From NCBI RefSeq assembly GCF_020164495.1, contig NZ_JAIQYZ010000001.1, positions 806,001 through 870,000 of the forward strand: a DNA stretch of 64,000 bases, read 5' to 3'. A program made the translations under genes and the position numbers. Positions 2 to 64,000 of this stretch are shown piece after piece (position 1 is the first letter of the stretch; each line of letters starts with the position of its first letter). The notes under the pieces are model-generated. The model was not told the origin of the DNA, did not search any database, and was given only the letters and a program-made list of their open reading frames with translations. Source of the stretch: Psychroflexus lacisalsi. GTDB taxonomy: Bacteria > Bacteroidota > Bacteroidia > Flavobacteriales > Flavobacteriaceae.

Positions 2-1066
2 GCTATCAAAGAAATGGCGTCAAAAATTCCCATACACAAGCGCGTAGATACTTTGGAAATCAAGAAATTGATTGAGGAGCAAATGGATAAGCGAAATCTG
101 AAATCTGATTACGACTTTGGAATTTACAGTAATGCTTTATCTACAAAGGTGAGAACATCAAGCTTTGAACTGAATTCACCCTCAACATATGGTATTCCTG
201 TTTATAGTTATAATGATGAATTTTCAGATTATCAACTATTCATTAATTTCAAAGATAAGAATCAACAGATTTTATCATCAATTGCATTGATGGGTGGGCT
301 TTCAGTATTGTTTACTCTAGTTATAGTTTTAGCGTTTTCTTCAGCAATTGGTCAATTGATAAGACAAAGACAGATATCTCAGATCAAAACTGATTTTATA
401 AATAATATGACGCACGAATTTAAAACGCCAATAGCAACAATAAATCTTGCACTAGATTCAGTGAAAAATCCAATGATTTCAAAAAATCCTGAAGCTGTTG
501 ATAGATATATGAATATGATTCGCGAAGAAAATAAGAGGATGCATGCTCAGGTTGAAAATGTGTTGAGAATTTCTAAGCTTGAAAAAAATGAATTGGACAT
601 TGATAAAGAAAAATTAAATCTTCACGAAATTATTGAAGATGCTATAAGTCATATTAATTTAATTGTAGAAGACAGGGGAGGTGCTATTAATACAGATCTC
701 AAAGCTAAAAGGGATACTATACTGGCAAATGACTCACATTTTTCCAATGTGATAGTGAATATTTTGGATAACGCTGTAAAATATTCAACAGATGCCCCTG
801 TTATAAACGTAGAAACTGAGAACGTAAACAATTATGTTGTTCTGATTGTTACGGACCATGGAAATGGAATGTCAAAACAAGTTCAGAAAAAAGTATTTGA
901 TAAATTTTACAGAGAACATACAGGTGATGTTCATAATGTAAAGGGTCATGGATTAGGTCTTTCTTACGTAAAAAGAATAGTAGATGACCATCACGGTGAA
1001 ATCTCTGTGAAAAGCGAAAAAGGAAAAGGAAGTTCATTTATAATTAAATTACCATTAATATCATAA
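2..1066 (+). CDS. rprX: Sensor histidine kinase, RprX-like (5' end outside window)
   Basis: Membrane sensor kinase that autophosphorylates and passes phosphate to the regulator encoded 4 bases downstream. The frame is open to the left edge of the window, so the true start lies upstream and the ATG at 14 is probably internal. Counting from that ATG there is an extracytoplasmic piece, one membrane helix at about 88-112, then the HisKA H-box NNMTHEFKTPI with His134, an N-box (NILDNAVKYS), G1 box DHGNGMS, F-box FDKFYRE and G2 box GHGLGLS. All catalytic boxes are intact. The pairing with an OmpR-type regulator and the overall sequence resemble the Bacteroidetes RprX/RprY pair; the name is by resemblance, and the signal sensed is not known from the sequence. 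Confidence 0.85.
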   Translation, partial: AIKEMASKIPIHKRVDTLEIKKLIEEQMDKRNLKSDYDFGIYSNALSTKVRTSSFELNSPSTYGIPVYSYNDEFSDYQLFINFKDKNQQILSSIALMGGLSVLFTLVIVLAFSSAIGQLIRQRQISQIKTDFINNMTHEFKTPIATINLALDSVKNPMISKNPEAVDRYMNMIREENKRMHAQVENVLRISKLEKNELDIDKEKLNLHEIIEDAISHINLIVEDRGGAINTDLKAKRDTILANDSHFSNVIVNILDNAVKYSTDAPVINVETENVNNYVVLIVTDHGNGMSKQVQKKVFDKFYREHTGDVHNVKGHGLGLSYVKRIVDDHHGEISVKSEKGKGSSFIIKLPLIS

Positions 1067-55925: not shown

Positions 55926-58406
55926 GTGTATAAAAAGATAATGATCATACTTGCTTTCCTTCCTATAGTTGGATTTGCTCAGAAGTATGAATTAACGGGA
56001 AAAGTTATAGATGATTCAATGGATTTTCCACTGGAATACGCATCAATTTCAGCCAAAAGTATCGAGGATGGCAGTGTTGTGAACGGTGGAGTAACTAATA
56101 GAGATGGGGTTTTCTCAATCAAACTAGAGAAGGGAACCTATAATCTTGAAATTGAATATATATCTTTTGAAGTGAAAAGGATGAATAATTTTACCATCGA
56201 TAAAGACACTAATCTTGGAACTATAAGGCTAGGTGCTAAAGCTGGGGAGCTTGATGAGGTCACAGTTGTAGCTGAAACTACACAAGTAGAAGTAAGACTC
56301 GATAAGAAAATTTATAACGTTGGTAAAGATCTAACAACTTCCGGAGGGACCGTTAGTGATGCTTTGGGTAATGTACCATCAGTAACAGTAGATATCGATG
56401 GAGCAATAAGCTTACGTGGTAATGAAAATGTAAGAATTTTGATTAATGGAAAACCATCTTCAGTGGCAGGTTTCGGGGATCAGGACGTGTTCCAACAGCT
56501 GCCAGCAGATGCAATTGAATCGGTTGAGGTCATCACTAGCCCATCAGCCAGATACGATGCGGAAGGTTCAGCAGGAATTATCAATATTATTCTCAAAAGA
56601 GAAAAGACACTAGGTTTCAACGGTTCATTGAGAGGAACTTTAGGCGATCCTAAAAATACAGGTGCTTTTGCAGATTTAAATTTAAGAACAGACAAGTTCA
56701 ATATATTTACCAGTTTAGGATACACGGATCGAACAAGACCTGGTAATGCTTTTTCCGATACTCAGTACTTAGATCCTGATGATGATGATTTTAGCAGAGT
56801 TATTGAAGATCGGGAGTATGATAGAAATGGTCAAAATTATAATATTAATGCTGGGGTGGAATACTTTATAGATGATATGTCCTCCATTACCGCTAGTTTC
56901 TTTGGACGATTAGGTGATGATCGTGACGTAACTACCAATTTGAATGATAGATTTGTTTTAGACTCAACAAATACTGAAATTTTCGATAGTAATACAATAA
57001 GAATAGAGGATGAGCTAGAAGAGGACGAGCGTTTTCAATATGCAATAAATTATGAAAAGCGATTTGATAAAGAAAACAGAGATCATAAACTAACTGCAGA
57101 TTTGCAGTATTCAAATAGCGATGAAACTAAAACAGCTATAATTAATGAAGACCAATTGTCACCAGTGGACTCAGTAGTCGCTTTTCAAGATGTGTTAGAA
57201 ACTGAATTTAGGGAAAGTTTTCTAGTTCAAGCGGATTATGTTTTACCTTTTGGCGATGCTCAATTTGAAGCCGGCTTTAGAGGAGATTATTCAGATCAAA
57301 ATCAAAGATTTTTGGTAGATAGACTCGTAGAAGGCGAAGTAACACCAAATGCTGATATTTCTAGTGATTTTGATTTTCAACAAAATATTACGGCAGTCTA
57401 TACTCAATATGGCGATAAAGTCGGTAAATTTTCATATTTGCTAGGATTGCGCTATGAGCAAACTCAATTGATTGGTACTACCACACCCTTATTTCCAGAT
57501 GATGTTTCATCTCCAGACCTCTTAGATGATTTAGATTTTGATAAAAATTTTGGCGGTTTTTTTCCCACAGTAAATCTAGTTTATGAATTAGGAGATGATG
57601 AGAATGTAACTTTAGGTTACAATAGGCGAATTAATCGACCAAGAAGCTGGTTTTTAAATCCTTTTCCTTCTCAGTCGAGTCGGGTGAATGTATTTCAAGG
57701 AAACCCAAATCTAAATCCTTCTTTCGCCAGTGCATTTGACTTGGGCTATTTAAAACGATGGGAAAAATTAACTCTTACAAGTTCTGTTTATTTTCAGAGA
57801 GAAACAGATGCTTTTGAAAGAATACGAAGAGATTCTGGAAGAAGGACTGAAGGCGATAATATACAAATTATCGAAAATATACCTATTAATTTAGCTACAG
57901 AAGAACGCTATGGAGCTGAAGTTGGTGTGCTTTATAACCCTACCAAATGGTTGAGAACTAATTTGAGTTTTAATTATTTTAGATTTGAAAGTGAAGGTGA
58001 TTTTGAAGGTACGCCGTTTGGAGCCACTAATGAAAGTTATTTTGGACGCTTCAGTTCTAATATCATTTTGCCATGGAAAATACAATGGCAAACCAATGCC
58101 TTCTACAGAGGGCCAAGAGAGAATGCTCAAACAAAAACCGACCCTATTGCATCTGTGGATATGGGCTTAAGTAAAGATTTTTTGAAAGATGATAACTTGA
58201 CGGTGTCTTTAAATGTCAGAGATTTATTTAATTCGAGAAGAAGAGATCAATTTACTGTAGCACCCACATTTATAGATGACAGTTCATTCCAGTGGAGGGT
58301 GAGACAGGTCACGGCAACAGTGGTCTATAGATTTAATCAACAGAAAAGAGATCAGAGACGCGGAGGAGATGAAGATTATGGGGATGGTGAATTTGGTGCT
58401 CAGTAA
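55926..58406 (+). CDS. TonB-dependent receptor with carboxypeptidase-regulatory-like domain
   Basis: 826-residue outer-membrane receptor. The start is GTG at 55926, giving signal peptide MYKKIMIILAFLPIVGFAQ; an ATG at 55941 would remove the charged n-region. N-terminal carboxypeptidase-regulatory-like domain (about 20-100; LTGKVIDDSMDFPLEYASIS), then a plug domain (about 125-215; VSDALGNVPSVTVDIDGAIS; RILINGKPS; SVEVITSPSARYDAEGSAGI) and a large beta-barrel (TonB-dependent, outer-membrane beta-barrel type 2) ending in VYRFNQQKRDQRRGGDED with an acidic/basic tail. No partner SusD or regulator lies beside it, so the ligand is unknown. Confidence 0.9.
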   Translation: MYKKIMIILAFLPIVGFAQKYELTGKVIDDSMDFPLEYASISAKSIEDGSVVNGGVTNRDGVFSIKLEKGTYNLEIEYISFEVKRMNNFTIDKDTNLGTIRLGAKAGELDEVTVVAETTQVEVRLDKKIYNVGKDLTTSGGTVSDALGNVPSVTVDIDGAISLRGNENVRILINGKPSSVAGFGDQDVFQQLPADAIESVEVITSPSARYDAEGSAGIINIILKREKTLGFNGSLRGTLGDPKNTGAFADLNLRTDKFNIFTSLGYTDRTRPGNAFSDTQYLDPDDDDFSRVIEDREYDRNGQNYNINAGVEYFIDDMSSITASFFGRLGDDRDVTTNLNDRFVLDSTNTEIFDSNTIRIEDELEEDERFQYAINYEKRFDKENRDHKLTADLQYSNSDETKTAIINEDQLSPVDSVVAFQDVLETEFRESFLVQADYVLPFGDAQFEAGFRGDYSDQNQRFLVDRLVEGEVTPNADISSDFDFQQNITAVYTQYGDKVGKFSYLLGLRYEQTQLIGTTTPLFPDDVSSPDLLDDLDFDKNFGGFFPTVNLVYELGDDENVTLGYNRRINRPRSWFLNPFPSQSSRVNVFQGNPNLNPSFASAFDLGYLKRWEKLTLTSSVYFQRETDAFERIRRDSGRRTEGDNIQIIENIPINLATEERYGAEVGVLYNPTKWLRTNLSFNYFRFESEGDFEGTPFGATNESYFGRFSSNIILPWKIQWQTNAFYRGPRENAQTKTDPIASVDMGLSKDFLKDDNLTVSLNVRDLFNSRRRDQFTVAPTFIDDSSFQWRVRQVTATVVYRFNQQKRDQRRGGDEDYGDGEFGAQ

Positions 58407-58426
58407 AGCATAACCACTAAATAAAT

Positions 58427-58463
58427 AAAAAAGGCAGGAAATAATTTATTTCCTGCCTTTTTT
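58427..58463. terminator. Terminator after the TonB-dependent receptor
   Basis: 17-bp arms with core GGCAGGAAATA / TATTTCCTGCC, three-base loop, A-run before and T-run after; it can also end the small minus-strand gene at 58484-58651. Confidence 0.85.
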
Positions 58464-58483
58464 GTTTAAAAACATATGTTGAT

Positions 58484-58651
58484 TTAGTCGTCTTTCTTTT
58501 TCTTACTGTCTTTGATTTCTTTTAAACGTTCAATCAACGAACCCCCAATCCAATACGGGATAATTGCCGTTAAAAAAATCAATAACCAAAAACCTATGGT
58601 TAAGATGAGTAAAAAAAGTAAAAACCCTAAATATTGATCAAATTCGAACAT
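58484..58651 (-). CDS. Small membrane protein of 55 residues
   Basis: A complete frame of 56 codons with ATG at 58651 and TAA at 58486-58484. It starts MFEFDQYLGF, then has a hydrophobic stretch of about 27 residues (from GFLLFLLILTIGFWLLIFLT into AIIPYW), and a positively and negatively charged tail (ERLKEIKDSKKKKDD). A single or hairpin membrane helix with the basic tail probably in the cytoplasm. It is too short for usual ORF cut-offs; coding potential is judged from its clean helix/tail layout and the terminator on its far side. Function unknown. Confidence 0.65.
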   Translation of the reverse strand: MFEFDQYLGFLLFLLILTIGFWLLIFLTAIIPYWIGGSLIERLKEIKDSKKKKDD

Positions 58652-58764
58652 CAGATTAAATTTTGTTTCTGCAAAGATAATTAAACAATGAAATACAAGC
58701 TCCTATTTCTTTAAAATAATTCTTCAGAAAGTTGACTTTAAAGTTTACTCAATTTAATATTTCT

Positions 58765-58772
58765 TAAATTTG
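58765..58772 (+). promoter_or_regulatory. -7 element of fumC
   Basis: TAAATTTG, exact match, 19 bases before the fumC ATG; the -33 position has TTT with 18-base spacing. Confidence 0.5.
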
Positions 58773-58791
58773 ACAAACAAAAATTCATACT

Positions 58792-60183
58792 ATGTCTTAC
58801 AGAATAGAAAAAGATACCATAGGCGATGTTCAGGTTCCTGCCGATAAATTATGGGCTGCCCAAACTGAGCGTTCGAGAAATAATTTTAAAATTGGACCAC
58901 AGGCTTCTATGCCTTTAGAAATCATCTACGGATTTGCTTATTTAAAGAAAGCTGCAGCATTTACAAATGCAGAATTAGGAGTTCTTGAAGAAGAAAAAAG
59001 AGATTTGATTGCTCAGGTTTGTGATGAAATCTTGGAAGGAAAACATGATGATCAGTTTCCATTAGTCATCTGGCAAACAGGTTCTGGAACTCAAAGCAAT
59101 ATGAATGTGAATGAAGTGATTTCAAATAGAATTCACCAATTGCAAGGCCATGAATTAGGAAAAGGCGACAAGTTCGTCTCTCCAAACGATGATGTCAACA
59201 AATCTCAATCTTCCAATGATACATTTCCTACAGGAATGCATATTGCGATTTATAAAAAAATCGTAGAAGTTACTATTCCAGGGGTTTCACAACTTAGAGA
59301 TCAACTTCAGAATAAAGCTAAAGCTTTTAAAGATGTAGTTAAAATAGGAAGAACACATTTCATGGATGCGACTCCATTGACCTTAGGTCAGGAGTTTAGC
59401 GGCTATGTTTCACAATTGAATCACGGACTAAAAGCTTTAGAAAACACTTTACCTCATTTACAAGAATTAGCTTTGGGTGGAACAGCAGTCGGAACTGGAC
59501 TCAACACTCCAGAAGGATATGCTGATAAAGTCGCACAATACATTGCAGAATTCACTAATCTTCCATTTGTCTCTGCTGAAAATAAATTTGAAGCACTTGC
59601 TGCTCATGACGCCTTGGTAGAAACTCACGGCGCATTAAAGCAACTAGCCGTATCATTGAATAAAATTGGAAACGATATCAGAATGCTGTCTTCCGGACCA
59701 CGAAGCGGGATAGGTGAAATTACCATTCCGGCCAATGAACCAGGTTCCTCGATCATGCCAGGAAAAGTGAATCCGACTCAATGTGAAGCGTTGACGATGG
59801 TTTGTGCTCAGGTTATGGGAAATGATGTAGCCATTGGAGTAGGAGGTATGCAAGGTCAATTTGAACTGAATGTCTTCAAACCTGTGATGGCTGCGAATAT
59901 TTTGCAGTCTGCAGAATTAATTGGTGATGCCTGTGTGTCTTTTGATGAAAACTGCGCTGCTGGCATTGATCCAAATCAAGAACGTATTGATGAATTGTTG
60001 AGAAATTCATTGATGTTGGTTACTGCTTTAAATACGAAAATAGGATACTACAAAGCAGCAGAAATTGCCAATACTGCTCATAAAAACGGAACAACTTTAA
60101 GACAAGAAGCCGTTAGGTTAGGTTATACTACTGAAGAAGAATTTGACAAATGGGTAAGACCAGAGGACATGACTAATTCCTAA
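58792..60183 (+). CDS. fumC: Class II fumarate hydratase
   Basis: Reversible hydration of fumarate to L-malate in the citric acid cycle; Fe-independent. 463 residues. [20 protein letters not shown] at the start, [53 protein letters not shown] with the catalytic His, and the lyase signature [15 protein letters not shown]. Single-gene unit with its own -7 element and a bidirectional terminator. Complete and typical. Confidence 0.97.
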
Positions 60184-60204
60184 TTGAGTTATCTAAATGT
60201 ATTT

Positions 60205-60245
60205 AAAAAGCTGGTTTGAAAATCTTTTTCAAACCAGCTTTTTTA
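60205..60245. terminator. Bidirectional terminator of fumC and the PCIF1-like operon
   Basis: 17-bp arms around a 4-base loop (core AGCTGGTTTGAAAA / TTTTCAAACCAGCT type) with A-run and T-run at the sides. It overlaps the stop of the minus-strand gene at 60243. Confidence 0.85.
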
Positions 60246-61223
60246 TTTGGAATAACCCTCTAGAATGGCTTCAGCAGAAAAACCATCAAGCTTGCCATAT
60301 CTGTGAATGCAAACATTAACTGGTAAAGGTTTTAAGACTCCCTCCAAACCCTCATAATAATGAATGTCTTTTTTCAAAGTCACTGTTTCATCAGGTTTGT
60401 TTTCTGGAGTATGACTTTCAGGGATGATGAGTAAAAAGCTTAAGTTTTTATAAGCTTCCAACCAGTTTTTAAGGATGGAATCTACTTTAGACATTATTTC
60501 GGTTGTGAAAGGTGGATCCAGGCACCAATCACCTGGGTTTTCTGGCTTACTTAGATTGAAAAAGCTTCCACCACTTCCAAATATACTATCGGTATCTTCA
60601 AATAAACTATAAAACTGGGCTTCTGATTTTCCTAATACCCGAGCATTGAAGGGGGATGCAAAACCTTCATTTCTTATTCCCCACTCATAAAATAAATCAT
60701 ATACCTTTTGGGGTGGGCCGATGTGTCTGGTTTCAGCATAGATGGAACCATATCTTAAAGCTGATCTCAAAATGGCATTTGTTGCTTTAGCCTCATCAGA
60801 TTTGGACTCCACATAATTGAAAGCTTTGTCGATATATTGGTTTCGTTTCAATTTGAAATTGCCGATTTCAAACAGATTGGTGTCAATTTTTGCTTCCTTA
60901 GGAGTTTCAATAGTTTCAAAGTAAGTTTTTGAAGCATCCTTAATCAATTGAAAACAGTGCTGTGTCTCAATCTCAGTCAGAATTAAATTCGCATATCCAA
61001 ATCCTGACTTTATCGAATCATAGTCAACTTTCAAAAATAAATCCTGACCATAAATTTCATGACTTGGCTGTAAATTCATCAGTGTGTTTTCTAGTCCAGC
61101 TTTTACTTCTGATTTATTTCCTTTCACTGATAAATACTGAAAAACATCTTCGAGTATTTTTTGGCTTAATGCCCAATGTTGGTATTCATCTTTAACTTCT
61201 GAATTTATTTCAACTGAATTCAT
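60243..61223 (-). CDS. PCIF1-like adenine N6-methyltransferase domain protein
   Basis: 326 residues, no signal peptide, no WW domain. The C-terminal half resembles, from memory of the human sequence, the catalytic domain of PCIF1/CAPAM: GFASPFNA (187-194; human FASPLN), DTDSIFGSGGSFFNL (210-224; human DTDGYFGSRG..), the N6-adenine methylase motif IV as DPPF (236-239; human NPPF) followed by TTEIMSKVDSILKN, and LSFLLIIPES (261-270; human LSFIVFIPEW). The N-terminal half (helical) may correspond to PCIF1's helical domain. A SAM-dependent N6-adenine methylation of RNA or DNA is inferred. It follows the ArsC-family gene by 58 bases, in the prfB operon, and ends at the shared terminator. No restriction enzyme is adjacent. 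Confidence 0.7.
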   Translation of the reverse strand: MNSVEINSEVKDEYQHWALSQKILEDVFQYLSVKGNKSEVKAGLENTLMNLQPSHEIYGQDLFLKVDYDSIKSGFGYANLILTEIETQHCFQLIKDASKTYFETIETPKEAKIDTNLFEIGNFKLKRNQYIDKAFNYVESKSDEAKATNAILRSALRYGSIYAETRHIGPPQKVYDLFYEWGIRNEGFASPFNARVLGKSEAQFYSLFEDTDSIFGSGGSFFNLSKPENPGDWCLDPPFTTEIMSKVDSILKNWLEAYKNLSFLLIIPESHTPENKPDETVTLKKDIHYYEGLEGVLKPLPVNVCIHRYGKLDGFSAEAILEGYSK

Positions 61224-61281
61224 GCTTTGTTTTTAAAGTTCAATTTACGAAGGCCTACACTTTACGTGCTTTCAATATTTA

Positions 61282-61623
61282 TTAAAGAATTCCTTTAATA
61301 TCTTCAGGCGGTCTTCCAATGGCCGCTTTGTCACCGTTGATGACAATCGGGCGTTCAATCAATTTTGGATGTTCATGCATGGCGTCAATTACTTCTGCAT
61401 CTGAAAGTGATTTTCCTTTGAAGTTTTCTTTCCAGATTTTTTCCTGAGTCCTCACTAAATTCATTGGAGAGATGTTGAGTTTGTCAAGTATAGATTTTAA
61501 ATCTTCTTTGGAAGGAATTTCTTCTAAATATTTTACGACTTCAAATTTATGTCCGGATTTCTCGAGTATGGCTAAACCTTCTCTGGACTTTTTACATCTT
61601 GGGTTATGGTATATTGTAATCAT
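61282..61623 (-). CDS. arsC: ArsC/Spx family protein (arsenate reductase-like)
   Basis: 113-residue thioredoxin-fold protein of the ArsC family, with Cys10 in NPRCKKSREGL and Arg residues in ERPIVINGDKAAIGRPPE. The single Cys at 10 with Arg in RPPE fits glutaredoxin-linked arsenate reductase, but such proteins are also seen with no arsenic link; no other ars gene is here, so true arsenate reduction is not shown. It overlaps the prfB stop by 4 bases (ATGA), so it is translated with prfB. Confidence 0.88.
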   Translation of the reverse strand: MITIYHNPRCKKSREGLAILEKSGHKFEVVKYLEEIPSKEDLKSILDKLNISPMNLVRTQEKIWKENFKGKSLSDAEVIDAMHEHPKLIERPIVINGDKAAIGRPPEDIKGIL

Positions 61624-62727
61624 AAGGTATCTGTTTCTTTTTTCTGTCCGCTGCTCATCAGGAAGGTTTTCAAAAAGGAATCAATATGACCATTCATAAT
61701 ATCGTCTACATTTCCACTTTCATGACCTGTTCTCACATCCTTCACAAGCTTGTAGGGATGCATCACATAATTACGAATCTGTGATCCCCATTCTATGCTT
61801 TTCTTTTCAGATTCAATTTCTGTTCTTGCTGCTTGTTGTTTTTTTAACTCAATTTCATAAAGTTGAGATTTCAACATTTGCATGGCTTTCTGCCTGTTTT
61901 CAAGTTGAGATCTAGTTTCAGAATTATGTATTACAATGCCGCTAGGGTGGTGAGTCAAAATGGCTTTGGTTTCAACTTTGTTGACGTTTTGTCCTCCGGC
62001 ACCACCAGATCTGGCAAAATCCCAGTTAATGTCAGATGGATTGATGTCGATTTCAATGGTGTCATCTACTAGTGGATACACATAAACTGAAGCAAATGAA
62101 GTGTGGCGTTTAGCATTACTGTCAAAGGGAGAAATCCTGACTAATCGATGTACGCCGTTTTCACCTTTCAGCCAACCAAAAGCATATTCCCCCTCAATTT
62201 CCAAGGTGACTGTCTTAATTCCAGCCACATCGCCAGATTGGTGATTGAGTTCTCTTACTTTAAATCCTTTTCGTTCAGCCCACATGATGTACATTCTCAT
62301 TAGCATTTCTGCCCAGTCACAGCTTTCGGTACCACCTGCTCCAGCTGTGATTTGAAGAATTGCTGTGAGCGGGTCACTATCTTCAGAAAGCATGTTTTTG
62401 AACTCTAAGTCTTCAATGAGGTCCAGGGCCTCGCTATATCGCTCTTGAATTTCCTCTTCTGACACATCACCTTCTTCATAAAATTCAAACAAAACGTTGA
62501 CATCTTCTACCTTAAGTTTGGCTTCATCAAAACTTTTGATCCACTGTTTTTCATCATTGATGGCTTGCATCAATTTTTGAGCCTCTTGAGGTTTATCCCA
62601 GAAATCTGGAGCAAAGGTTTTTTCTTCTTCGTTGGAAACTTTTACGCGTTTAGCATCTAAGTCAAAGATACTGGTTTAGGGAAGTGATACGCTCGTTAAT
62701 GGTCTTTATGGAGTCTGAATTGATCAT
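61620..62727 (-). CDS. prfB: Peptide chain release factor 2, with programmed +1 frameshift
   Basis: Recognises UGA and UAA stops and triggers peptide release. The 5' part starts at ATG 62727 (MINSDSIKTINERITSLNQY) and reaches an in-frame TGA at codon 22 (62664-62662) inside CTTTGAC; moving forward one base continues into the main frame (next codon GAC at 62663) for 347 further residues, total 368, normal RF2 length. Downstream: SPF tripeptide (RLVRISPFDSNAKRHTSF) and the catalytic GGQ (SGGAGGQNVNKVETKA). A strong SD-like sequence before CTTTGAC is not seen. The promoter at 62743-62773 fits this start. It leads the prfB-arsC-PCIF1-like operon. Confidence 0.95.
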
Positions 62728-62742
62728 AGTTAGAAGTTTTGT

Positions 62743-62773
62743 CAAATTTAGAAATTATCTCGGTGGTCATCAA
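62743..62773 (-). promoter_or_regulatory. Consensus promoter of prfB
   Basis: TTG (62773-62771), 20 bases, TAAATTTG (62750-62743) on the minus strand. The element ends 15 bases before the ATG at 62727, confirming that the frameshifted 5' part is in the message. Confidence 0.65.
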
Positions 62774-62808
62774 TCTAATTATGTTTATTTTCGAATAAAA
62801 GTACTTAA

Positions 62809-63843
62809 ATGAAAATTGATTTAAGAAGTGATACAGTGACACGGCCAACCAAAGAGATGTTGGATTATATGATAAATGCAGAAGTTGGCGATGATGTGTA
62901 CAAAGAAGATCCGTCCGTCAATCAGCTGGAAACGTATCTAGCCGATTTGTTTGGTATGGATGCCGCTTTGTATTTCCCAACAGGATCCATGTCCAACCAG
63001 GCTGCCATCAAGCTGCATACGCAACCTGGCGAACAATTGATTTGTGATAAATGGGCTCACGTTTATAATTATGAAGGCGGCGGCGTTTCCTTCAACAGCG
63101 GAGTATCCTGCAAACTTGTAGACGGTGATAAGGGTAAAATCACAGCCAATTTGGTTGAAGAAGCCATTAATCCGCCAGATTTTTACCACAGTCCCTTAAC
63201 CTCCTTGGTGTGTTTGGAAAACACGACCAACAAAGGTGGCGGTGCTTGTTATGACTTAGAAACCATTCGATCTATACGTACAGTCTGCGATAAGCACGGC
63301 TTAGGATTACACCTTGATGGTGCCAGACTTTATAATGCCATTGTTGCTAACAACCACGATCCAAAAGATTTCGGGAAAGAATTTGATACGATTTCATTAT
63401 GTCTATCCAAAGGTCTTGGCGCACCCATGGGCACAGTTTTGATGGGAAATGACGACCTGATGAAAAACGCCATAAGAGTAAGGAAAGTGCTTGGTGGCGG
63501 AATGCGACAGGTGGGTTATATGGCTGCTGGGGCCTATTATGCCTTACATCATCATGTCGAGAGATTGAATATTGATCACCAAAGAGCCAAAGATATCGAG
63601 AAGGTTTTGAATAAGCATCCGTTGATCAAAGCTGTGGATCACGTTGAAACTAATATTGTTATCTTCAATTTACAGCCACATATAGATGAGGTTAAGTTTA
63701 TGAGAGATCTCGAAGAAAAAGGTATCCGAATCAGTAATATGGGAAATGGCAAAATGCGATTGGTCACACATTTGGATTACACTCAAGAACAGCATGAGTA
63801 TTTTCTGGAAACTATCACAAGCATGGAAATGCAAACTGCTTAA
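62809..63843 (+). CDS. ltaE: Low-specificity L-threonine aldolase
   Basis: PLP-dependent cleavage of L-threonine/allo-threonine to glycine and acetaldehyde. 344 residues. KIDLRSDTVTRPTKEML at the start, YFPTGSMSNQAAIKLH, the Asp-containing GLGLHLDGARLYNA (PLP ring contact), and the PLP Lys201 in SLCLSKGLGAPMGTVLMG, followed by RKVLGGGMRQVGYMAAGA. Complete. It is divergent from prfB with about 80 bases between and is followed by a repeat-like stretch. Confidence 0.95.
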   Translation: MKIDLRSDTVTRPTKEMLDYMINAEVGDDVYKEDPSVNQLETYLADLFGMDAALYFPTGSMSNQAAIKLHTQPGEQLICDKWAHVYNYEGGGVSFNSGVSCKLVDGDKGKITANLVEEAINPPDFYHSPLTSLVCLENTTNKGGGACYDLETIRSIRTVCDKHGLGLHLDGARLYNAIVANNHDPKDFGKEFDTISLCLSKGLGAPMGTVLMGNDDLMKNAIRVRKVLGGGMRQVGYMAAGAYYALHHHVERLNIDHQRAKDIEKVLNKHPLIKAVDHVETNIVIFNLQPHIDEVKFMRDLEEKGIRISNMGNGKMRLVTHLDYTQEQHEYFLETITSMEMQTA

Positions 63844-63850
63844 CTTTTTT

Positions 63851-64000
63851 GGAGCTTCCCGCACCTAAAAAGGCGCGGTCGGGCTTTCCGTTTCAATGCT
63901 TCGACCCAAAAGCATAAAACTAAAAAGTCCAGCTCGGCTTCTTAGGTCGCCAGCTGGACTTTAGTTTTATAAGCTTTTAGGCTTGCAGGATTTCTACTAC
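63851..64000. repeat. GC-richer repeat-like stretch with long hairpin at the window end
   Basis: Non-coding sequence after ltaE, higher in G+C than the other intergenic regions. It begins CACCTAAAAAGGCGCGGTCG then GGGCTTTCCG, a core that from memory resembles dispersed intergenic repeats of Flavobacteriaceae. From 63908 to 63978 it holds two 27-base arms, nearly perfect (core AGTCCAGCT/AGCTGGACT, two small bulges), with a 17-base loop that could be a terminator or a mobile hairpin. The end beyond 64000 is cut. Confidence 0.5.

What the first reader, a model, noticed from the sequence alone, without database searches (positions are those of the whole stretch)
60243..61223. Bacterial homologue of the cap-m6Am methyltransferase PCIF1
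Seen: the segments GFASPFNA, DTDSIFGSGG, DPPF and LSFLLIIPES occur in the same order and spacing as FASPLN, DTDGYFGSRG, NPPF and LSFIVFIPEW in human PCIF1, as I recall that sequence. The [D/N]PP[F/Y/W] motif is the N6-adenine methylase catalytic motif. PCIF1 is known as a eukaryotic mRNA cap-adjacent adenosine methyltransferase; bacteria have no such cap. The gene lacks the WW domain, has no restriction partner, and is co-transcribed with prfB and an ArsC-like gene in what looks like a core region. It may methylate tRNA, rRNA, mRNA 5' ends or DNA, and could illuminate the origin of PCIF1.
Basis: partly seen in the sequence, partly recalled or inferred. Interest (0 to 1): 0.85.

Follow-up and report, generated by a model that had tools for sequence, protein, structure and literature searches.

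The report
Bacterial relative of human PCIF1 methylase
A salt-loving marine bacterium carries a stripped-down relative of PCIF1, the animal enzyme that methylates the first adenosine after the mRNA cap, although bacteria make no such cap, so it probably marks adenosines in some other nucleic acid, most likely RNA ends, and this can be tested directly.

Summary
Window 60243-61223 (-) is an intact 326-codon gene in a Psychroflexus genome. It matches Pfam PF12237 (8.5e-20, 71.5 bits, cut-off 31.1) and no other Pfam family; the nearest solved proteins by sequence are zebrafish and human PCIF1. Its AlphaFold model aligns with human PCIF1 over 302 of 326 residues (Z 20.5; best non-PCIF1 chain 9.6), so helical domain plus methyltransferase core are shared. 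It lacks the WW domain, has DPPF for NPPF and a much shorter helical domain. It is rare and patchy: 17 proteins found (14 of 27 genomes of its genus, Salibacter halophilus, two other MAGs), in unrelated bacterial neighbourhoods, under purifying selection within Psychroflexus. The prfB-arsC neighbourhood is not a functional clue. Best reading: a SAM-dependent adenine-N6 methyltransferase (confident) acting on RNA, perhaps at a 5'-terminal adenosine with a bacterial cap or phosphates (inferred, about 0.35). A 2022 survey reported no prokaryotic PCIF1 homologue; phage enzymes near PCIF1 were noted in 2021. Direction of transfer between bacteria and eukaryotes is unresolved.

The parts
60243..61223 (-). 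gene of the bacterial PCIF1/CAPAM-type methyltransferase, 326 aa, stop codon included
60729..61223 (-). N-terminal helical domain (residues 1-165), a shorter counterpart of the PCIF1 helical domain
   Evidence: whole-model alignment starts at residue 7; alone: zebrafish PCIF1 aligned over 150 of 165 residues but Z only 6.2, below unrelated, mostly partial matches at up to 7.5
60246..60728 (-). Rossmann-fold methyltransferase domain (residues 166-326)
   Evidence: PF12237 match residues 155-272; strands and helices of the model
60642..60662 (-). FASPFNA (residues 188-194), counterpart of PCIF1 FASPLN, probable SAM-binding loop (inferred)
   Evidence: invariant in 17 of 17 rows; aligned with PCIF1
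60507..60518 (-). DPPF (residues 236-239), catalytic motif, counterpart of PCIF1 NPPF 553-556
   Evidence: invariant in 17 of 17 rows; aligned with NPPF
60205..60243 (.). perfect 18-bp inverted repeat with 3-nt loop, probable shared transcription terminator between convergent fumC and this gene
   Evidence: -22.4 kcal/mol, z -7.2; the consensus terminator scan did not list it
61282..61623 (-). neighbour: arsC-like gene (TIGR00014 over cut-off), 58 nt upstream; context only
61620..62727 (-). neighbour: prfB (RF2) with a +1 frameshift site at 62661-62670; context only
   Evidence: start at 62727 is read from the sequence
58792..60183 (+). neighbour: fumC, convergent; context only

Best explanation
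The gene encodes a solitary SAM-dependent adenine-N6 methyltransferase of the PCIF1/CAPAM family. Shown by computation: it shares with PCIF1 the conserved catalytic region by sequence and the helical-plus-methyltransferase core by predicted fold, has an intact DPPF motif, and is under purifying selection within Psychroflexus. Inferred: the FASP.N loop holds SAM, the substrate adenine is placed on DPPF, and the groove between helical and catalytic domains holds single-stranded RNA so that an adenosine at or near its 5' end is methylated. Since bacteria have no m7G cap, the 5' group would be a triphosphate or a bacterial non-canonical cap (NpnA, NAD); a methyl on such a cap-proximal A might slow decapping and stabilise RNA under stress. 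Probability: adenine-N6 methyltransferase of this family 0.9; RNA as substrate 0.7; 5'-terminal adenosine as target about 0.35.
For: PF12237 hit well over cut-off, and a match in 17 of 17 relatives; PDB profile hits only to PCIF1 at E <= 0.001, best 4.7e-10; Foldseek's only match with E <= 0.001 is zebrafish PCIF1, 9.3e-9; VIA-align Z 20.5 over 302 of 326 residues to human PCIF1, next family 9.6. 18 of 27 columns invariant in bacteria within the aligned stretch 179-274 are identical in human PCIF1. dN/dS 0.08-0.18 in six pairs. A review reports that human PCIF1 also methylates uncapped 5'-Am RNA (the cap analogue reacts 3-4 times faster, affinity differs little) and ssDNA at half the level of the uncapped RNA (PMC11550742, passages), so a capless substrate is plausible. 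m6Ap3A exists as an RNA cap in E. coli, methylation of the caps tested (m7Gp4Gm, mAp5G, 2mAp5G) protects fully or partly from RppH, and the methyltransferases were still being sought (PMC7044304, passages).
Against: No activity data. The same review also concludes that PCIF1 activity depends on an m7G cap. The residues that hold the m7G ribose in PCIF1 are not evidently kept: the position after DPPF that fits Glu563 is T in the window protein and E in only 2 of 17, and no column before residue 127 is basic in all 17 (best 14 of 17). The window protein is acidic (pI 5.1; the set ranges from 4.9 to 8.4), unlike the positive groove described for PCIF1. E. coli has m6Ap3A caps, yet the 14-genome control set showed no PF12237 match (the set is named, with E. 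coli), so this family is not needed for that mark there; m6Ap3A itself was not among the caps reported, in the passages seen, as tested for resistance. The helical domain alone does not stand out from unrelated folds (Z 6.2; no Foldseek hit at E <= 0.001).
Confidence: 0.4

Rival explanations
1. Same enzyme chemistry, but the target is an internal adenosine of rRNA, tRNA or another structured RNA; the helical domain was re-purposed where no m7G cap is available.
For: The cap-ribose residues reported for PCIF1 are not clearly conserved, and single-copy solitary genes with no fixed partner are typical of rRNA/tRNA methyltransferases (general knowledge).
Against: About half of the genus does without it (14 of 27 have it), unusual for rRNA/tRNA modification enzymes though not unknown; PCIF1 itself is reported to prefer the 5'-terminal A.
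Confidence: 0.3
2. An orphan DNA adenine methyltransferase, perhaps for regulation or against restriction, with a PCIF1-like fold because both descend from a small Dam-like ancestor.
For: Small phage Dams were called nearest to the PCIF1 clade by others (PMC7824862, passage), though that paper suggests they act on RNA; human PCIF1 acts on ssDNA; the profile alignment to nine phage Dams is collinear over 97 columns and puts DPPF on NPPY.
Against: That profile match is not significant (probability 0.47 percent, E 0.12); no PF05869 match at E <= 1; no PADLOC model (3 of 17 proteins); no restriction gene among the immediate neighbours scanned at the six kinds of locus (one side only for L028, whose contig ends there); no relative in phage or plasmid records.
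Confidence: 0.15
3. A protein glutamine methyltransferase acting on RF2, whose gene prfB lies two genes upstream.
For: prfB and arsC directly upstream in 12 of the 14 genomes of the genus that have the gene; [ND]PP[FY] is shared with PrmC (recalled).
Against: The genome has its own PrmC, TIGR03534 241.6 bits over the cut-off of 199.1; no NCBIfam model hits this protein at E <= 1; the five loci with other neighbourhoods are not beside prfB as far as their contigs show; prfB and arsC persist without the gene in six of six negative genomes examined.
Confidence: 0.03
4. A recent gift from a marine eukaryote that has no settled function and drifts.
For: Rare and patchy distribution; CAPAM-like enzymes occur in haptophytes and choanoflagellates (PMC7641849, passages).
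Against: Purifying selection, DPPF and FASPFN kept in 17 of 17, deep divergence (37-54 percent identity to the window protein for the seven most distant members) and bacterial genes around the loci examined speak for a long functional life in bacteria, whatever the origin.
Confidence: 0.05

Closest known systems
PCIF1 / CAPAM (cap-specific adenosine-N6 methyltransferase; Pfam PF12237, misnamed PCIF1_WW; PDB 6irv-6is0)
   Same: Sequence profile; order and spacing of FASP.N, D.D..FGS.G, [ND]PPF and the following strand; helical domain plus methyltransferase core aligned over 302 of 326 residues
   Different: Bacterial; no WW domain; 326 against 704 residues; DPPF for NPPF; helical domain of about 160 residues against the 287-residue range 200-486 of zebrafish; loop after FASPFNA five residues longer; cap-ribose residues not evidently kept; no m7G caps in the host (established knowledge)
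Small phage Dam (PF05869), e.g. AMM43637.1 of Pectobacterium phage CBB, placed by others nearest to the PCIF1 clade (PMC7824862)
   Same: Adenine-N6 methyltransferase class, [ND]PP[YF], collinear motif order in a non-significant profile alignment
   Different: 140-215 aa in the nine rows aligned, so no room for the helical domain; different Pfam family
CAPAM-like domains fused to DCD or eTudor domains in haptophytes and choanoflagellates (PMC7641849, passages)
   Same: CAPAM-type methyltransferase domain (paper's statement)
   Different: There the DCD domain takes the place of the helical domain; the bacterial protein has a helical domain.
PrmC/HemK (TIGR03534)
   Same: [ND]PP[FY] catalytic motif (recalled), prfB nearby
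   Different: Not hit by the model; a separate PrmC is in the genome

Membership tests
PCIF1/CAPAM family | Match to PF12237 over the curated cut-off | tested here: met
   71.5 bits against 31.1; the 16 relatives also over the cut-off in genome searches
PCIF1/CAPAM family | [N/D]PPF catalytic motif at the right place | tested here: met
   DPPF in 17 of 17, aligned with NPPF of human and zebrafish PCIF1; Asn to Asp change
PCIF1/CAPAM family | Helical domain joined to a Rossmann methyltransferase domain in the PCIF1 arrangement | tested here: met
   Z 20.5, rmsd 4.3, 302 residues, 7..325 on 196..668 of 6irv; caveat: helical part alone Z 6.2 over 150 residues, not above unrelated folds
PCIF1/CAPAM family | WW domain that binds phosphorylated Pol II CTD | tested here: not met
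   no WW family hit at E <= 1; PCIF1 proper has it outside the catalytic core, so this is a core-family member, not a PCIF1 orthologue in the full sense
PCIF1/CAPAM family | m7G-cap ribose residues (Arg239, Arg269, Glu563 of the review) | tested here: inconclusive
   Glu position is T here, E in 2 of 17; no column before residue 127 basic in all 17; residue-level superposition was not available, and the review does not name the species of its numbering; I take it as zebrafish from the alignments
PCIF1/CAPAM family | SAM-dependent N6 methylation of the first transcribed A | not testable with these tools
   needs an enzyme assay
Phage Dam PF05869 | Match to PF05869 | tested here: not met
   no hit at E <= 1, none in 17 members at E <= 0.1; profile-profile probability 0.47 percent
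PrmC/HemK | Match to TIGR03534 | tested here: not met
   no NCBIfam hit at E <= 1; genuine PrmC elsewhere in the genome
Restriction-modification or defence methylase | Defence model hit or nuclease partner | tested here: not met
   PADLOC no hit for 3 of 3 proteins given; immediate neighbours scanned are not restriction genes; one MAG has an Endonuclease I gene with a secretion tail beside it (L029), not an R-M nuclease

The most novel reading that the evidence does not exclude
Some bacteria write a cap-adjacent N6-methyl mark: this enzyme methylates the first transcribed adenosine of RNAs that begin with NpnA or NAD (or pppA), a bacterial counterpart of m6Am, and the minimal bacterial form shows what the PCIF1 core did before, or without, the m7G cap and the Pol II tether.
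Probability: 0.25. Interest if true: 0.85.

Novelty: new variant of a known kind. Interest (0 to 1): 0.6.

Why it matters
A published survey of 88 organisms (17 of them bacteria) states that PCIF1 has no prokaryotic homologue and left it out of its tree (PMC8868631, passages). Here are 17 bacterial proteins with the catalytic core and a helical domain, several from named species with strain numbers (Psychroflexus, Salibacter), in cells without m7G caps. That gives a small enzyme with which to test what the PCIF1 core recognises besides m7G, a candidate writer for methylated non-canonical caps whose enzymes were reported as still sought (PMC7044304), and a possible outgroup for the origin of PCIF1.

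Tried and rejected
Rejected: generic methyltransferase similarity (only PCIF1 stands out; control genomes empty). Eukaryotic contamination (own gene lies in a 1.56-Mb contig among bacterial genes; relatives sit among bacterial genes). Mobile-element cargo (no relative in phage or plasmid records or viral contigs; these searches reach distant relatives poorly). RF2 methylation. Two sub-threshold PF12237 hits, L014 and L015, were looked at and dropped: the reading frames there are, by my recognition, an M16-type peptidase and the complement of a TonB-type receptor.

Led nowhere: helical domain alone by Foldseek; HMM alignment of the helical domain with PCIF1 (about 0 bits); widening the profile from 14 to 17 rows, which gave a slightly weaker PDB hit (3.3e-9 against 4.7e-10); phage Dam profile, in register but not significant; Rfam on 58000-64000 (nothing); promoter and terminator consensus scan (no more sites than shuffles); direction of transfer, since no eukaryotic collection is on hand. 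In the gene tree the deep order is unreliable: long branches meet. VIA-align rows for other methyltransferases (KsgA, Erm, Dam, RlmJ, Z about 8-9.6) show the common fold only.

Rows left out of counts: dN/dS used 11 of the 17 sequences; the prfB tree has 18 rows, leaving out two positives with other neighbourhoods (G002, G006) and seven negatives (G007, G010, G011, G014, G015, G023, G715) with no close arsC match or with prfB off the contig; synteny was examined in 6 of the 13 negatives.

Not read: Iyer et al. 2016 and Boulias et al. 2019 (both recalled; not held), which may discuss bacterial relatives. The statement that bacterial chromosomal PCIF1 homologues were not found in print rests in an open-access library only; of the listed papers I saw passages of PMC8868631, PMC7641849, PMC7824862, PMC11550742, PMC7948815, PMC7044304 and PMC11823360, and of the rest only the listing.

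Full report
Observation. Pfam gives one family at E <= 1, PF12237 'PCIF1_WW', 8.5e-20, 71.5 bits against a cut-off of 31.1, residues 155-272. The family name misleads: others found it to be the CAPAM-like methyltransferase, not a WW domain (PMC7641849, passages). The nearest solved proteins are zebrafish and human PCIF1: 3.2e-6 with the single sequence, 4.7e-10 with the profile of 14 relatives, 3.3e-9 with 17, 1e-8 with one divergent relative. The next rows are antibody light chains and one uncharacterised chain at E of 0.02 or more. In the stretch 179-274, 18 of the 27 columns that are invariant in all 17 bacterial proteins are identical in human PCIF1.

Structure. AlphaFold on the 14-row alignment gives pLDDT 87, pTM 0.80. 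Foldseek has one PDB match with E <= 0.001, zebrafish PCIF1. VIA-align puts six PCIF1 entries on top, Z 18.3-20.5, 291-303 residues of 326, model 7..325 on human 196..668; the best other chain is a dimethyladenosine transferase with Z 9.6 over 131 residues, residues 167-311 only. So the resemblance includes the arrangement of the N-terminal domain. Taken alone, the N-terminal domain (pLDDT 93) matches PCIF1 over 150 of 165 residues but with Z of only 6.2, below unrelated chains (up to 7.5, most over about 80 residues), and Foldseek finds nothing at E <= 0.001. I read this as a shared but strongly reduced helical domain; the evidence for it comes from the whole chain and is weaker than for the catalytic domain.

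Differences from PCIF1. No WW domain; DPPF instead of NPPF; in the alignment to human PCIF1 the bacterial loop after FASPFNA is five residues longer. A review names Arg239, Arg269 and Glu563 as cap-ribose contacts and reports that N553A and F556G reduce activity (PMC11550742, passages). The position after DPPF that fits the Glu is T in the window protein, T, S or K in the 12 rows with the prfB-arsC neighbourhood, and E in 2 of 17; no column before residue 127 is basic in all 17. The m7G pocket is therefore probably not kept, although residue-level superposition could not be done.

Distribution. 14 of 27 genomes of the genus have it (12 of 23 good ones). Names there: P. longus, tropicus, aurantiacus, curvus, montanilacus, gondwanensis, sediminis, salarius, Salibacter halophilus (Salibacteraceae), and MAGs labelled Psychroflexus (two), Flavobacteriaceae, Bacteroidetes and proteobacterium: 14 loci, with seeds that reach near relatives only. 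Elsewhere: 2 of 299 family genomes over the cut-off, both in the genus (two more at E <= 0.001 were false); 3 of 395 in the phylum, all in the genus; 3 of 295 in the class, two in the genus and one whose coordinates match Salibacter; and only the centre genome itself in the phylum (1 of 329) and order (1 of 63) of the 'proteobacterium' MAG and in the family (1 of 88) of the 'Bacteroidetes' MAG. Groups were sampled, not exhausted. Nothing in phage or plasmid records or viral contigs.

Neighbourhood and history. In 12 of the 14 positive genomes of the genus prfB and arsC lie directly upstream and fumC lies convergent downstream: within the 1.5-kb flank in 11, about 0.7 kb off in the twelfth. The other two (L027, L029) and the three further loci (L025, L028, L030) have other, mutually different bacterial neighbours, e.g. 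YchF, a tRNase Z-like protein, acetyl-CoA synthetase, fatty acid hydroxylase, flagellin and a BCCT transporter. In six of six negative genomes examined (of 13) prfB and arsC persist, in one separated by about 0.6 kb, and neither the gene nor fumC is found in the 6.6-9.7 kb downstream. On the prfB tree of 18 rows presence and absence need at least 2 changes, which alone would fit two gains; negative G020 and the pair G003/G016 are grouped with positives, on forks of 91-93 bootstrap that are not starred. Because the 12 positives share one site, I prefer one gain and two losses, which costs 3 changes (inference). The 18-bp perfect inverted repeat at 60205-60243 looks like a shared terminator, though the consensus scan did not list it. 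dN/dS is 0.08-0.18 in the six of 55 pairs with dS under 1; 34 pairs were saturated.

How it most likely works. N6-adenine methylation from SAM by the DPPF site is inferred from family and fold with high confidence. The substrate is open. A review reports human PCIF1 acting on uncapped 5'-Am RNA and on ssDNA, yet also sums up that its activity depends on the m7G cap. E. coli RNA carries NpnN caps including m6Ap3A; methylated forms of Gp4G and Ap5G resisted RppH fully or partly; the authors wrote that the methyltransferases were still to be found (PMC7044304, passages). A later review mentions these caps, with no writer named in the passages I saw (PMC11823360). A cap-proximal adenosine is therefore the most economical guess, at about 0.35. 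Against it: E. coli, which has m6Ap3A, is in the control set that shows no PF12237 match (set named). Internal RNA targets are nearly as likely. DNA is less likely. RF2 is unlikely because a separate PrmC exists.

Relation to print. PMC8868631 (passages) reports, from 88 taxa including 17 bacteria and 6 archaea, that PCIF1 occurs only in eukaryotes and has no prokaryotic homologue. PMC7824862 (passage) calls a jumbo-phage Dam, AMM43637.1, nearest to the PCIF1 clade and suggests it may act on RNA; here that protein is PF05869, 180 aa, without a PF12237 match, and its family aligns collinearly but not significantly with the bacterial profile. So PCIF1-like enzymes in the prokaryotic world are not wholly unheard of, but a bacterial chromosomal protein with the full core was not found in the searches made. 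Automatic databases probably already carry PF12237 on these proteins (assumption). Verdict: a real, rare bacterial member of the PCIF1 core family, a new variant of a known kind.

Noticed in passing
window 62661-62670 (-): prfB has the RF2 programmed +1 frameshift site TATCTTTGAC (motif recalled); the real start is probably the ATG at 62727, so ORF callers begin it too late.
   Followed up: partly
Pfam PF12237: The Pfam name PCIF1_WW is wrong for its content (a methyltransferase domain), which may hide such proteins from annotators; already remarked in PMC7641849.
   Followed up: yes
L028 96-1097; L030 6312-7301: Two divergent relatives come from MAG contigs labelled Bacteroidetes and proteobacterium, the second beside a BCCT transporter and a flagellin gene; their taxonomy rests on the MAG labels, and the start of the L030 gene is uncertain.
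   Followed up: partly
residues 165-171 (TRHIGPP), window 60711-60731 (-): TRHIGPP is invariant in all 17 bacterial proteins at the domain junction; only its last P lies in the alignment to human PCIF1; its role is unknown.
   Followed up: no
L070 4220-5931: Three neighbouring genes of about 180 codons share the stretch ATQTGENTFGCLLDGE, downstream of prfB-arsC in a genome of the genus that lacks the methyltransferase: apparent tandem duplicates.
   Followed up: no
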